This document shows positions 5,867-8,455 of a DNA stretch of 8,462 nucleotides, in pieces. Within the stretch, counting starts at the first letter, position 1. Each line of letters begins with the position of its first letter. The position numbers and the translations under genes are program-made. This stretch comes from Bacillota bacterium (lineage in GTDB: Bacteria > Bacillota > Clostridia > Tissierellales > Sporanaerobacteraceae): NCBI GenBank assembly GCA_029779375.1, contig JAKPAR010000326.1, positions 1 through 8,462 on the forward strand, written 5' to 3'. The notes beneath the pieces were generated by a model. It was not told where the DNA came from, did not search any database, and saw only the letters and a list, made by a program, of their open reading frames with translations.

Positions 5867-6216
5867 GGGGGCGAATTTGGTTTCGACGGGGACGTGGAGT
5901 AAAGAGCAGCGAGTCGTTGTCGCCAAGCAACGTTAAAAGTGGCAACTAAAATTAAACGCAGACGATAATTACGCATTAGCTGCCTAGTCAGGTAGCCGTC
6001 CTGCTTGAGAATCCCACGACTCAAGATAGGGCGTCAATTTAGTGGGGACCCGAGCCCTACAAAGCTTTGAGTAGGGAACGGAAATCATGAAGCTACTGAA
6101 GCTTGAACCCTGTCAGTAGGGGTCAAGTGGAGGGAATGAAAAAATACTGACTGCACTCGGAGAAGCTCTTTACAAAGCGTTTTCGGACGTGGGTTCGACA
6201 CCCACCGCCTCCACCA
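5867..6216 (+). ncRNA. ssrA: Transfer-messenger RNA (tmRNA)
   Basis: A 350-nt one-piece tmRNA that rescues ribosomes stalled on broken mRNA and adds a degradation tag. The 5' end GGGGGCG (5867-5873) pairs with CGCCTCC (6206-6212) to form the seven-pair acceptor stem (one G-U), followed by A and an encoded CCA. The conserved 5' block AATTTGGTTTCGACGGGGAC forms the D-like region, and the T arm is GTGGG-TTCGACA-CCCAC at the 3' end. The tag frame starts at 5958 and ends at TAG 5985-5987. The stretch between the tag and the T arm carries several GC-rich complementary segments, as expected for the pseudoknots. Alanine charging is expected from the family. It lies directly after its partner smpB and ends before a terminator. 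Confidence 0.97.
5958..5987 (+). other. tmRNA-encoded proteolysis tag ADDNYALAA
   Basis: The resume codon GCA (5958-5960) opens a nine-codon frame, ADDNYALAA, closed by TAG. With the alanine delivered by the charged tmRNA, the full tag would be ten residues, one shorter than the E. coli tag. The YALAA end matches the usual recognition end for ClpXP-type proteases. The short ADDN-type head resembles clostridial tags and supports the taxonomic guess. Confidence 0.9.
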
Positions 6217-6542: not shown

Positions 6543-6734
6543 ATGTTGGTTTTAGGCATGAGGCCTAACGATTATATATTAATTGGTGACGATATCATGG
6601 TTAAGGTCATCAAAAGTAGTGGAGACAATATTCGCCTTGCTATTGAGGCTCCCAAAGATGTACCTATTGTTAGGGGAGATGTTTATGAAAGAAATATATG
6701 TGAGGGGAATATGAATGAAGACAAGATTGATTAA
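6543..6734 (+). CDS. csrA: Translational regulator CsrA
   Basis: Small dimeric RNA-binding protein that binds GGA motifs in mRNA leaders and blocks translation; in Firmicutes its best-known target is flagellin mRNA. The protein has 63 residues, the normal size. MLVL at the start, IGDDIMVKV, GDNIRLAIEAPKDVPIVR and VYERNI follow the CsrA pattern, and the RNA-contacting Arg44 is present. The N-terminal TRK of typical CsrA is replaced: residues 5-10 read GMRPND, so Arg6 is lost and Arg7 kept, and His43 is replaced by Val. The start is fixed by AAGGAGGAG about 5 nt upstream; an upstream in-frame ATG would add 39 unrelated residues. The gene precedes flagellin by 88 nt, as in fliW-csrA-hag clusters, but fliW, whose product antagonises CsrA in B. 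subtilis, is absent here. Confidence 0.9.
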   Translation: MLVLGMRPNDYILIGDDIMVKVIKSSGDNIRLAIEAPKDVPIVRGDVYERNICEGNMNEDKID

Positions 6735-6822: not shown

Positions 6823-8076
6823 ATGAGAATTAACAACAATCTTATGGCTATGAACACTCATAGACAACTAGGAATCAACAACAACATGACTGCAAAGTCA
6901 CTAGAAAAACTATCATCAGGATTTAGAATTAACAGAGCTGGAGATGACGCAGCAGGACTAGCAATATCAGAAAAGATGAGAGGCCAAATCAGAGGATTAA
7001 ACATGGCTTCAAAGAATGCACAAGATGGTATTTCTCTAATTCAAACAGCAGAAGGTGGACTTAATGAAACACACGCAATCCTTCAAAGAATGAGAGAACT
7101 AGCAGTACAATCATCAACTGACACAAATGTTGATGCTGATAGAAATGCTATTCAGGATGAGATGAACCAGTTATTAAAAGAAATAGACAGGATTTCAAAT
7201 ACTACAGAATTTAACACTCAGAAGTTGCTTGATGGATCATTTGAAGGTCAATTCCAAATTGGAGCAAATGAAACTCAAAACATGAGCCTAGCTGTTAACA
7301 AAATGGATTCATCTAGCCTTGGTCTTGTAGGTTCTATGACTGTAGAAACAGCAACCACCGCTGTTGGTGCTTTATTAAAAGATGGAACTTATACAGTAGA
7401 TTCAACAGGTGGGAAATTACTAGATGCAGCAGGAAAAGAAGTAGGTGTAGTATCTGGGAAAGAGATTACTTTAGCAGATGGAACGACAAAAATAACCTTT
7501 ACAAATGAAGATCTTACGGCAGGAGCAAAGGTTACTATTGGCAAAGATGGAAAAGAAGCAGTTTTAGATAAAGTTGTGGTTGCAGGGAATGAAAATAAAT
7601 TAGCAGCTGGAGAATATGAAATAAGCGGTACAGATGTATTAAAAGATGGTAAAAAGATAGGTGCAGTTGATGGAACTATAAAAACACAAATAAACTTTAC
7701 TGATGGTACTACATTAGATACTGCAACAGTATTTGGTAAAACAGCGGCCCTTGCAGGTAAATTTACTATAAAAGGTGTAGACGTAACAAATAGATTACAA
7801 GCTGAAGGAAGCATTACTGCTATAAATAAGGCTATTGAACAAGTATCAACTGAAAGATCAAAACTTGGTGCAGTTCAAAACAGATTAGAACATACAATCA
7901 AGAACCTTGATACATCAGCAGAAAACTTACAAGCAGCAGAATCAAGAATCAGAGACGTAGACATGGCAAAAGAAATGATGGAATTCACAAAACAAAACAT
8001 ACTACAACAAGCGGCAACAGCTATGTTGGCTCAAGCAAATTCACTTCCTCAGGGAGTACTTCAATTATTAAGATAA
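6823..8076 (+). CDS. hag: Flagellin (reading through into the intron, unspliced form)
   Basis: Structural subunit of the flagellar filament, exported by the flagellar type III apparatus. This frame gives 417 residues. The N-terminal D0/D1 helices are textbook: MRINNNLMAMNTHRQL, KLSSGFRINRAGDDAAGLAI and EKMRGQIRGLNMASKNAQDG, through about residue 165. A variable, surface-exposed region (about 170-325) is rich in Lys, Asp, Gly and Thr and contains related segments near 186-222 and 260-297, each with a G-x-Y start and a DGTT end. The C-terminal D1/D0 helices resume near 330 (AINKAIEQVSTERSKLGAVQNRL) and end SLPQGVLQLLR. The last 14 codons and stop lie inside the inferred group I intron. After splicing, codon 403 (GCT, 8029-8031) joins 8411 and the protein ends QAPQTVLQLLR, again 417 residues. 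The strong AAAGGAGGT fixes the start. Confidence 0.95.
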   Translation: MRINNNLMAMNTHRQLGINNNMTAKSLEKLSSGFRINRAGDDAAGLAISEKMRGQIRGLNMASKNAQDGISLIQTAEGGLNETHAILQRMRELAVQSSTDTNVDADRNAIQDEMNQLLKEIDRISNTTEFNTQKLLDGSFEGQFQIGANETQNMSLAVNKMDSSSLGLVGSMTVETATTAVGALLKDGTYTVDSTGGKLLDAAGKEVGVVSGKEITLADGTTKITFTNEDLTAGAKVTIGKDGKEAVLDKVVVAGNENKLAAGEYEISGTDVLKDGKKIGAVDGTIKTQINFTDGTTLDTATVFGKTAALAGKFTIKGVDVTNRLQAEGSITAINKAIEQVSTERSKLGAVQNRLEHTIKNLDTSAENLQAAESRIRDVDMAKEMMEFTKQNILQQAATAMLAQANSLPQGVLQLLR

Positions 8077-8099
8077 TATGAGGAATGAATTTATGGGTC
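8028..8099 (+). other. Extended P1 helix of the intron containing the alternative flagellin end
   Basis: The exon end GGCT (8028-8031) pairs with GGTC (8096-8099), with a T-G pair at the inferred splice site as group I introns require. CA (8032-8033) pairs with TG (8094-8095). After a small internal loop, 8037-8043 pairs with 8086-8092 and, past one bulged C, 8045-8051 pairs with 8079-8085, both perfectly. That gives about 20 pairs in all. The 27-nt loop (8052-8078) holds the last codons and the TAA of the unspliced flagellin. The 3' exon also begins CA, so it can replace intron CA on 8094-8095 as P10 before exon ligation. Confidence 0.75.
8032..8076 (+). repeat. Direct repeat: alternative flagellin 3' end (copy 1, inside intron)
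   Basis: These 45 nt align without gaps to 8411-8455. They share CAAGCAAA at the start and 19 identical bases at the end (8059-8077 against 8438-8456). Nine of fifteen codons are identical and three of fourteen residues differ (Ser/Gln, Leu/Ala, Gly/Thr). The differing middle codons are the ones locked in the P1 stem. Confidence 0.9.
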
Positions 8100-8410
8100 C
8101 ATTAGAGAGCAATCTCTAATCGCAAATTGGGTGAATTGCTGGAACTTCCTAAAGCCCTACTCCCTACAACGTAGTCTGAAAGGACAAGCGTGAAAGGTTG
8201 AAAAGTAGTAGAGATGAAACAATGGATAATCAGCAGCCGAGCTCCTGTTCTGAAAAGATGGAGAAGGTTCAACGACTAGGATATACCACCTAAAGCGTAA
8301 TGCCATGGTGATGAAATCCATAGGGGCAGAGGTGCCCTCGAAGTACCCAACAACCACTATTATGGTTGAAGATATAGTCTGGCATATATTGAAAAATATG
8401 TGATGGTCCG
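8032..8410 (+). ncRNA. Self-splicing group I intron in flagellin
   Basis: A 379-nt intron with the conserved group I core and no protein gene. P2 is 8101-8108/8113-8120 with a GCAA tetraloop. P3 is about 8127-8133/8287-8293, P4 8136-8141/8231-8236, a P6-type stem 8242-8245/8260-8263, and P7 8274-8278/8375-8379. A P8-type hairpin is 8301-8308/8318-8328, and a further stem is 8351-8356/8363-8368. P9 is about 8383-8387/8396-8400. The core blocks AATTGCTGGAA, AATCAGCAGCC, GTTCAACGACTAG and AAGATATAGTC correspond to the P, Q, R and S elements. The 5' site is set after T8031 and the terminal G is 8410. These borders join GCT to CAA in frame and restore an intact flagellin end, which strongly supports them. 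Splicing would need only guanosine and magnesium. The first 45 nt duplicate the 3' exon. Confidence 0.92.
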
Positions 8411-8455
8411 CAAGCAAACCAAGCACCTCAAACAGTGCTTCAATTATTAAGATAA
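8411..8455 (+). CDS. hag: Flagellin 3' exon (spliced C-terminus)
   Basis: Fourteen codons plus TAA (8453-8455) encode QANQAPQTVLQLLR, a typical flagellin C-terminus. It has no ribosome binding site or start of its own and reads in frame with codon 403 only when the intron is removed. The spliced coding sequence is 6823-8031 joined to 8411-8455. The C-terminal D0 helix it completes packs the inner core of the filament and takes part in export and chaperone contacts in known flagellins. The flagellin terminator must lie beyond the window. Confidence 0.88.
   Translation, partial: QANQAPQTVLQLLR

What the first reader, a model, noticed from the sequence alone, without database searches (positions are those of the whole stretch)
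8028..8455. Group I intron that offers two complete flagellin C-termini
The intron interrupts flagellin after codon 403, yet its own first 45 nt encode a full alternative end with a stop. Unspliced and spliced mRNAs both give 417-residue flagellins, differing only at three positions (SLPQG against QAPQT). Usually intron retention destroys the product; here both outcomes look functional. Group I introns have been reported in flagellin genes of thermophilic bacilli, so the host gene is not unique, but an intron carrying an alternative terminal exon in its 5' end is unusual and may be a C-terminus switch or a way to make the intron harmless.
Basis: partly seen in the sequence, partly recalled or inferred. 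Interest (0 to 1): 0.93.

Follow-up and report, generated by a model that had tools for sequence, protein, structure and literature searches.

The report
Flagellin intron carrying spare gene ending
Near the end of a bacterial flagellin gene sits a predicted self-splicing intron whose first 45 bases encode a complete second copy of the gene's ending, so messages that splice and messages that do not would both give full-length flagellin; 58 of 60 related introns at this same site carry such a spare ending, which likely protects the host from failed splicing.

Summary
8032-8410 is a group I intron by covariance model (94 bits) in a flagellin gene. Its first 45 nt encode a full C-terminus (QANSLPQGVLQLLR*), and the 3' exon 8411-8455 encodes another (QANQAPQTVLQLLR*). 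It is not a one-off: of 60 introns found at this site, 58 carry the in-frame tail, and all 60 keep the 5' U and the terminal G.

The intronic tail is selected as protein. Against the gene's own second tail, codons 6-14 show 281 synonymous but only 17 amino-acid differences in 53 genes. Its first codons also pair with the segment behind its stop codon, extending P1, so it is dual-coded; this likely explains the residue differences and argues against a functional switch.

Best reading: a fail-safe. Translation of unspliced mRNA ends inside the P1 loop, upstream of the ribozyme core, with a complete flagellin. At two other flagellin sites related introns have no tail; there all 32 end the unspliced frame in Ala-Ala (8 in YALAA), like tmRNA tags, a predicted degron. 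So these introns appear to encode the fate of their own unspliced product: completed or condemned. Splicing, translation and degradation are untested. The 2009/2012 papers on thermophilic Bacillus flagellin introns could not be read.

The parts
6823..8031 (+). flagellin 5' exon, codons 1-403, ends ...ATG TTG GCT|
   Evidence: ORF 6823-8076; Pfam Flagellin_N and Flagellin_C; exon ends in U in 60 of 60 introns at this site
8032..8410 (+). predicted group I intron, 379 nt
   Evidence: RF00028 match 8081-8401, 94.1 bits; 5' U and terminal G in 60 of 60
8032..8076 (+). intronic alternative C-terminus (tail 1): QANSLPQGVLQLLR and stop TAA
   Evidence: in-frame tail of 14 or 15 residues in 58 of 60 introns at this site; purifying selection
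8027..8033 (+). P1, 5' strand: as folded U8027-A8101, G8028-C8100, G8029-C8099, (U8098 bulged), C8030-G8097, U8031.G8096, C8032-G8095, A8033-U8094; another register has G8029.U8098 and G8028-C8099
   Evidence: fold of the window strand; comparison over 60 introns
8094..8101 (+). P1, 3' strand with the guide sequence GGGUC (8095-8099), 18 nt behind the tail-1 stop
   Evidence: stop-to-guide distance 7-18 nt in 56 of 58 tailed introns
8037..8051 (+). P1 extension, 5' strand, inside tail 1 (8037-8043 and 8045-8051)
   Evidence: fold; own tail pairs better on average than swapped tails or own tail 2 across relatives
8079..8092 (+). P1 extension, 3' strand, just behind the tail-1 stop codon
8081..8401 (+). 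stretch matched by the Rfam group I model, catalytic core included
8411..8455 (+). 3' exon: second C-terminus (tail 2) QANQAPQTVLQLLR and stop TAA
   Evidence: a tail 2 behind each of the 60 introns (required by the census)

Best explanation
8032-8410 is a predicted group I intron whose first 45 nt encode a complete spare flagellin C-terminus, and it likely acts as a fail-safe: a spliced message would end in tail 2, while ribosomes on an unspliced message would finish tail 1 and stop inside the P1 loop, before they reach the catalytic core, having made a full-length flagellin. Tail 1 is dual-coded: its codons 2-7 also pair with the segment just behind its stop codon and so bring the guide sequence to the splice site (supported by folding and comparison). 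Translating tail 1 must therefore open P1, so translation and splicing of one molecule are expected to compete (inferred). Both tails are under protein-level purifying selection (shown), so both isoforms are probably made in nature (inferred). The residue differences between the tails lie mostly where P1 constrains tail 1, so they are likely a cost of RNA folding and not a functional switch (inferred).
For: Covariance match. 58 of 60 introns at this site carry the in-frame tail of 14/15 residues; all 60 keep 5' U and 3' G. Guide base 4 can pair with exon base -3 in 60 of 60. Tail 1 against own tail 2, codons 6-14: 281 synonymous and 17 amino-acid codon differences in 53 genes; 120 and 10 in 24 representatives under 90% core identity. 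pN/pS of codons 6-14: tail 1 0.147, tail 2 0.143; tail 1 read in frames +1 and +2 (13 codons): 1.01 and 3.05. Residue 8 of tail 1 matches the gene's own tail 2 in 48 of 53 (null 29.1, 0 of 20000 shuffles), in 22 of 24 representatives (null 13.8, 0 of 20000); residue 14 in 50 of 53 (null 46.3, 17 of 20000): tail 1 follows its host's flagellin. Post-stop segment pairs with own tail 1 at -6.7 kcal/mol on average against -4.2 with swapped tails (0 of 5000) and -3.2 with own tail 2 (tail 1 stronger in 42 of 49, equal in 4); representatives -7.97 against -4.3 (0 of 20000). Both isoform ends score 114.8 bits for Flagellin_C, the truncated one 93.5. Not automatic near a gene end: site C lies 4 nt upstream, yet 0 of 9 introns there carry a tail, and 0 of 23 at site B.
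Against: No RNA or protein data. 12 of the 60 genes also carry a tail-less site B intron, so for them an unspliced transcript still fails upstream. Two site-A introns have no tail (L191, L207), on separate branches of the core tree (L207 is a long branch), so it is dispensable when splicing is good. The P1 extension is clear only in part of the introns taken singly: 33 of 49 pair better than shuffled segments by more than 1 sd. Residue 7 is uninformative (47 of 53 match, as in every shuffle, since tail 2 never varies there). Shuffles do not model relatedness; the representatives do so only roughly. A paper seen in passages (PMC4853749) reports second-hand that splicing of the thermophilic Firmicutes flagellin intron is temperature dependent and promotes motility at higher temperature, which suggests that unspliced message is not fully equivalent there; I could not read the originals.
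Confidence: 0.75

Rival explanations
1. A regulated C-terminus switch: the ratio of spliced to unspliced message is controlled (temperature, translation rate, CsrA upstream of the gene) and the two flagellins differ in function.
For: The two tails differ by 1-3 residues within codons 1-5 in all 53 genes compared; the Geobacillus-type intron is reported second-hand to splice temperature-dependently (PMC4853749); translation through tail 1 would have to open P1, so ribosome traffic could set the ratio; a CsrA gene lies directly upstream.
Against: Codons 2-5 are where tail 1 pairs with the post-stop segment, which explains the difference without a functional switch. Elsewhere tail 1 follows the host's own tail 2 (residue 8). 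Pfam scores the two isoform ends alike.
Confidence: 0.13
2. The intron hardly splices; the gene in effect ends at tail 1, and tail 2 is a remnant.
For: Tail 1 is complete; two loci look like this end state: L019 (no U at the site, altered distal tail) and L184 (flagellin ending intact, intron relic and tail downstream).
Against: In 60 of 60 site-A introns the splice-site U and the terminal G are kept; tail 2 is under as strong selection as tail 1 in codons 6-14; the core region P4-P7 has 85% mean column identity over 11 introns.
Confidence: 0.06
3. Tail 1 is never translated to its stop; it is an RNA element of P1 that resembles coding sequence because it arose by duplication of exon 2.
For: Codons 2-7 take part in the P1 extension.
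Against: Codons 6-14 vary at synonymous positions and hardly at residues (281 against 17); shifted frames lose the signal; introns at sites B and C, and two at site A, do without a tail.
Confidence: 0.04
4. Assembly chimera at the contig end.
For: The window ends 7 nt behind the second stop codon of a fragmented MAG (402 contigs).
Against: The same layout occurs in another assembly (L002, MAG UBA4916) and in isolates such as Geobacillus jurassicus, Anoxybacillus rupiensis and Neobacillus mesonae.
Confidence: 0.01

Closest known systems
Group I introns in flagellin genes of thermophilic Bacillus/Geobacillus (Hayakawa & Ishizuka 2009, 2012; known to me only through PMC3984707 and PMC4853749, passages seen)
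   Same: Same host gene; Geobacillus jurassicus (L069) carries a site-A intron of this family. The cited titles speak of self-splicing in Geobacillus stearothermophilus.
   Different: Here: site A in 8 of 391 genomes of the window's own class and 41 of 398 of the class of G774, Neobacillus mesonae; conserved spare C-terminus in the P1 loop; contrast with sites B and C. Whether those papers note the two endings, or concern the same site, could not be checked.
Clostridium tetani group II intron C.te.I1 in a surface layer protein gene (PMC3919590, abstract and outline seen)
   Same: A self-splicing intron in a surface protein gene with more than one coding outcome; the unspliced mRNA also encodes an isoform.
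   Different: Group II, four alternative splicing reactions, distinct isoforms; here group I, the spare ending lies inside the intron's own P1 loop and encodes nearly the same end.
c-di-GMP-controlled group I ribozyme of Clostridioides difficile (PMC3984707, passages seen)
   Same: Alternative outcomes of a group I intron affect what is translated.
   Different: There the ligand changes where the ribosome binding site ends up; no alternative C-terminus. Rfam gave no riboswitch match in the window at gathering score.
IStrons (group I intron plus insertion sequence; PMC3984707, passages seen)
   Same: Mobile group I introns in protein genes of Firmicutes.
   Different: The window intron is 379 nt, too short for a transposase gene; one relative (L206) has a LAGLIDADG ORF in the intron instead.
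SsrA (tmRNA) degradation tag (PMC7652416, passages seen)
   Same: The tail-less relatives at sites B and C end the unspliced frame in Ala-Ala, eight of them in YALAA; that paper says for E. [quoted passage not shown]
   Different: Here encoded in the mRNA by an intron, not added by tmRNA; degradation is untested.

Membership tests
Group I intron | conserved catalytic core | tested here: met
   RF00028 over model positions 1-253, 94.1 bits, gathering 50
Group I intron | U.G wobble at the 5' splice site inside P1 formed with an internal guide sequence | tested here: met
   exon U in 60 of 60; guide GGG[C/U/A] (sought as such) at 34-38 nt before P4, base 4 pairing with exon base -3 in 60 of 60; window fold has U8031.G8096
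Group I intron | terminal G before the 3' exon | tested here: met
   G8410; 60 of 60 introns
Group I intron | guanosine-dependent self-splicing | not testable with these tools
   needs in vitro transcription
Group I intron | subgroup IA2 | not tested
   stated for the thermophilic flagellin intron in PMC4853749; not examined here
Flagellin | N- and C-terminal helical domains | tested here: met
   Flagellin_N E 4.6e-49, Flagellin_C E 1.3e-31
Alternative terminal exon | both outcomes give a complete reading frame with stop | tested here: met
Alternative terminal exon | both outcomes occur in the cell | not testable with these tools
   selection on both tails is indirect evidence
SsrA-like degron (relatives at sites B and C only) | C-terminal Ala-Ala | tested here: met
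   32 of 32; codon positions 1 and 2 invariant, wobble positions and stop vary
SsrA-like degron (relatives at sites B and C only) | Leu before Ala-Ala | tested here: inconclusive
   LAA in 10 of 32, EAA in 11 of 32, others 11 of 32
SsrA-like degron (relatives at sites B and C only) | degradation by ClpXP | not testable with these tools
   needs an assay

The most novel reading that the evidence does not exclude
Flagellin group I introns carry in their P1 loop a product-fate cassette: at the C-terminal site a complete spare ending that rescues the unspliced product, at two other sites an SsrA-mimicking Ala-Ala degron that condemns the truncated product. The intron thus encodes the handling of its own splicing failures, and ribosome traffic through P1 decides which flagellin is made.
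Probability: 0.5. Interest if true: 0.92.

Novelty: new variant of a known kind. Interest (0 to 1): 0.83.

Why it matters
Introns in bacterial protein genes are expected to pay for every ribosome that arrives before splicing. This family shows two written answers to that cost, both conserved: finish the protein, or (predicted) tag it for destruction. It makes an open question directly testable: how a self-splicing intron survives in a gene that is usually strongly expressed (general knowledge), in cells where translation is coupled to transcription. The tail is also a short natural example of a sequence under selection as protein and, it appears, as ribozyme helix at once.

Tried and rejected
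Regulated switch as the first choice: rejected because the tail differences fall where P1 pairs. Assembly chimera: rejected by recurrence. Phage or plasmid origin of the unit: in the rows listed (20 of 44 phage records, 9 of 9 plasmid records) the match covers either the flagellin part or the core, and no record covers 80% of the query; none of 46 stretches from viral contigs with the core motif has a flagellin tail, by a regex, within 1500 nt. Host-specific degron: tmRNA tags end in AA in all 32 found among 36 loci scanned, but the residue before does not follow the host's tag, for example in G147 and G910, so only the generic Ala-Ala is claimed. RNA structure alone as the reason for Ala-Ala: the two Ala codons lie in a P1-extension hairpin, but codon positions 1 and 2 never vary in 32 while the wobbles do. 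L067 P4-like motif: no second tail behind it, taken as chance. The ORF L019:4094-4663, which I thought nuclease-like, matched no Pfam family. Rfam gave no riboswitch in the window at gathering score.

How the census was made and what was left out. looked, in all loci held at that time except the viral ones, for the P4 motif GTGAAYTGCWGG with a flagellin tail 2 within 1300 nt behind it, then for the exon motif: site A ATG-(YTN or ATG)-(GCN or TCN) followed by CAR or AAR, site C GCNATGCT followed by NGA, site B GWYGTNGAY. Splice-site U (site A), terminal G, tail length and last residues are not part of these motifs; the first codon behind sites A and C partly is. One locus with a tail 2 fitted no site (L184), 26 had no tail 2. 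A later look at all fetched core-search loci outside the classes found no further flagellin intron except copies of classified ones and L184. The second intron of L220, read by eye, has two tails but a variant P4 motif and is not among the 60. Eight weak matches (under 50 bits) were not fetched. Rows dropped: one search used 53 of 54 tailed introns then held (the 15-residue tail left out); one search used 49 of 54 (four without a regex match for the guide, one with an insert of about 100 nt); pN/pS used the 57 tails of 14 residues; one search used 25 representatives of 58, 23 for pairing and 24 for codons.
Full report
What is there. The window is 1-8462 of contig C161 of a 1.8 Mb metagenome-assembled genome in 402 contigs. 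Upstream lie a Mur ligase, D-Ala-D-Ala ligase, an RNB-domain exonuclease, SmpB, a tmRNA gene and CsrA. The flagellin gene starts at 6823. Its frame runs through codon 403 (GCT, ending at 8031) into QANSLPQGVLQLLR* (stop 8074-8076). Behind that stop lies a group I intron core (RF00028, 8081-8401, 94.1 bits), then G8410 and a second ending, QANQAPQTVLQLLR*, at 8411-8455. It is the only RF00028 match in the genome. Both isoforms are 417 aa; their last 89 residues score 114.8 bits each for Pfam Flagellin_C, and the piece cut at codon 403 scores 93.5.

Recurrence. A scan for flagellin C-termini kept 80 loci (582 relatives among the candidates, a capped list). Ten of them, plus the window, showed two flagellin tails with a group I core between, at ATG-TTR-GCT|CAR and G|CAA. 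A covariance model of the core (R1, 155 positions) was run over 391 genomes of the window's class, 398 of its phylum and 398 of the class of G774, the genome of Neobacillus mesonae L044 (strict filters, which lose some weak matches). After removing identical cores, 92 flagellin introns were classified by exon motif (the motifs are given under Tried and rejected): 60 at site A (after MLA, MLS or MMA and before Q, the window's site), 23 at site B (after RDVD) and 9 at site C (within the Leu codon of AML, 4 nt upstream of site A; all 9 have G before the AGC that opens the 3' exon). Genomes with site A: 8 of 391 in the window's class and 41 of 398 in the class of G774 (a 42nd, L220, was read by eye). 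Of the 60, one is the window, 10 came by flagellin similarity and 49 by core similarity; of the last, 47 carry the tail.

The tail is a rule at site A and absent at the other two. 58 of 60 site-A introns begin with an in-frame tail of 14 (57) or 15 (1) residues. The two exceptions, QLLVA* (L191) and QFEQVA* (L207), sit in different tailed branches of a tree of the cores (L207 is a long branch), so the tail was probably lost at least twice. The tree does not decide whether it arose once: the site-A introns of Geobacillus, Anoxybacillus and three relatives group with sites B and C (98/97). Introns at sites B and C stop after 5-7 residues (32 of 32). Closeness to the gene end is thus no sufficient cause: site C is only 4 nt away.

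Splice sites. All 60 site-A introns keep U before and G at the end of the intron, neither being part of the search. A guide sequence, sought as GGG[C/U/A], lies 34-38 nt before P4 (36 or 37 in 57 of 60); its three G's are so by the way it was sought, but its fourth base can pair with exon base -3 in 60 of 60: G-C 46, G-U 12, T-A 2 (the two T-A introns are sisters). The strand of the window folds on its own into P1 8027-8033 with 8094-8101, U8031.G8096 included and U8098 bulged (-20.9 kcal/mol, z -2.1, 9 of 200 shuffles as good). In Neobacillus (L184) a flagellin gene without intron ends in exon 1 followed directly by 46 nt identical to the tail behind a nearby intron relic, the identity starting exactly at the predicted 3' splice site.

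Two layers of information in tail 1. Compared with tail 2 of the same gene, codons 6-14 differ in 281 synonymous and 17 amino-acid codons over 53 genes; with one representative per core cluster (under 90% identity) 120 and 10 over 24. pN/pS for these codons is 0.147 among tails 1 and 0.143 among tails 2, while tail 1 read in frames +1 and +2 gives 1.01 and 3.05. Where flagellins differ by host (residue 8: G, A, Q, T, S), tail 1 follows the same gene's tail 2 in 48 of 53 (shuffled mean 29.1), residue 14 in 50 of 53 (46.3); residue 7 says nothing. Codons 1-5 are looser in tail 1 (0.416) than in tail 2 (0.076), and this is where the segment between the tail-1 stop and the guide sequence pairs back: with its own tail -6.7 kcal/mol on average, with swapped tails -4.2, with its own tail 2 -3.2 (49 introns, tail 1 stronger in 42; 33 exceed shuffled segments by more than 1 sd; representatives -7.97 against -4.3 and -4.09). 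In the window the extension is 14 pairs with one bulge, 8037-8051 with 8079-8092. The stop lies 7-18 nt before the guide sequence in 56 of 58.

How it probably works. Shown by sequence: the anatomy, the pairing potential and selection on both endings. Inferred: a ribosome that reaches the site before splicing opens P1, completes tail 1 and stops before the core; it delivers flagellin and leaves the core folded, so that the message can still splice and later ribosomes make tail 2. Translation and splicing then compete, and either outcome is acceptable. That in-frame stops may help group I introns to fold under translation is in print (PMC3984707, passages); what this site adds is that the stop comes behind a complete product.

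The relatives suggest a second answer. The window's own tmRNA encodes the tag ADDNYALAA. The tail-less introns at sites B and C end the unspliced frame in Ala-Ala in 32 of 32 cases: at site B YAEAA 9, YALAA 8 and six others, at site C 9 further endings in AA. The first two bases of both Ala codons never vary, the wobble bases and the stop codon do. None of the 58 tailed introns ends so, nor do 19 non-flagellin introns for which a long frame ending near P1 was found (longest-frame heuristic; 11 end EQGGSR). The two tail-less site-A introns end in VA. Tags of 36 scanned tmRNA loci, 32 found, all end in AA. PMC7652416 (passages) states for E. [quoted passage not shown] So the short extensions are predicted degrons that remove truncated flagellin. 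Against this: Leu precedes Ala-Ala in only 10 of 32 and Glu in 11, the codons also sit in a hairpin, the introns are related to each other, and nothing was assayed.

Mobility. One site-A intron (L206) holds a LAGLIDADG ORF (PF03161, E 1.4e-19). Twelve loci carry both a site A and a site B intron. L019 and L184 look like later stages: flagellin endings intact, intron relic and an extra tail downstream.

Literature. Searches for group I intron with flagellin and related terms and with ssrA/degron listed no paper whose title or shown start of abstract speaks of two flagellin endings or an intron-coded degron; the lists were capped, the library lacks most subscription journals, and the two primary papers on the thermophilic Bacillus flagellin intron are not held. 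Novelty is claimed with that reserve.

Noticed in passing
window 5867-6216 and site B/C introns (23 and 9 loci): The window's tmRNA tag is ADDNYALAA; tail-less flagellin introns at two other sites end the unspliced frame in Ala-Ala (32 of 32), 8 of them in YALAA: a predicted intron-encoded degron.
   Followed up: partly
L206:1659-2387: A site-A flagellin intron contains a LAGLIDADG endonuclease-like ORF.
   Followed up: partly
L019:3277-4950 and L190 (reverse strand) 2500-2960: Intron 3' halves with an altered or decayed flagellin tail behind a flagellin gene; similar ORF ends (L019:4094-4666, no Pfam family) lie just before them.
   Followed up: partly
L184:1080-1840: Flagellin paralog without intron whose ending is identical over 46 nt to the tail behind an intron relic downstream; a small ORF (MAVKHIPTGVV...) lies between.
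   Followed up: partly
L129 (reverse strand) 960-1850; 12 loci in all: Flagellin genes with two group I introns (sites B and A), cores about 450 nt apart in L129.
   Followed up: partly
window 6543-6734: CsrA gene directly upstream of the flagellin gene; a possible link between flagellin translation control and splicing was not examined.
   Followed up: no
L229, L231, L234, L235, L237, L241-L246: Introns of the same core family in another gene (not identified), whose unspliced frame ends in ...EQGGSR*, without Ala-Ala or a spare flagellin tail.
   Followed up: partly
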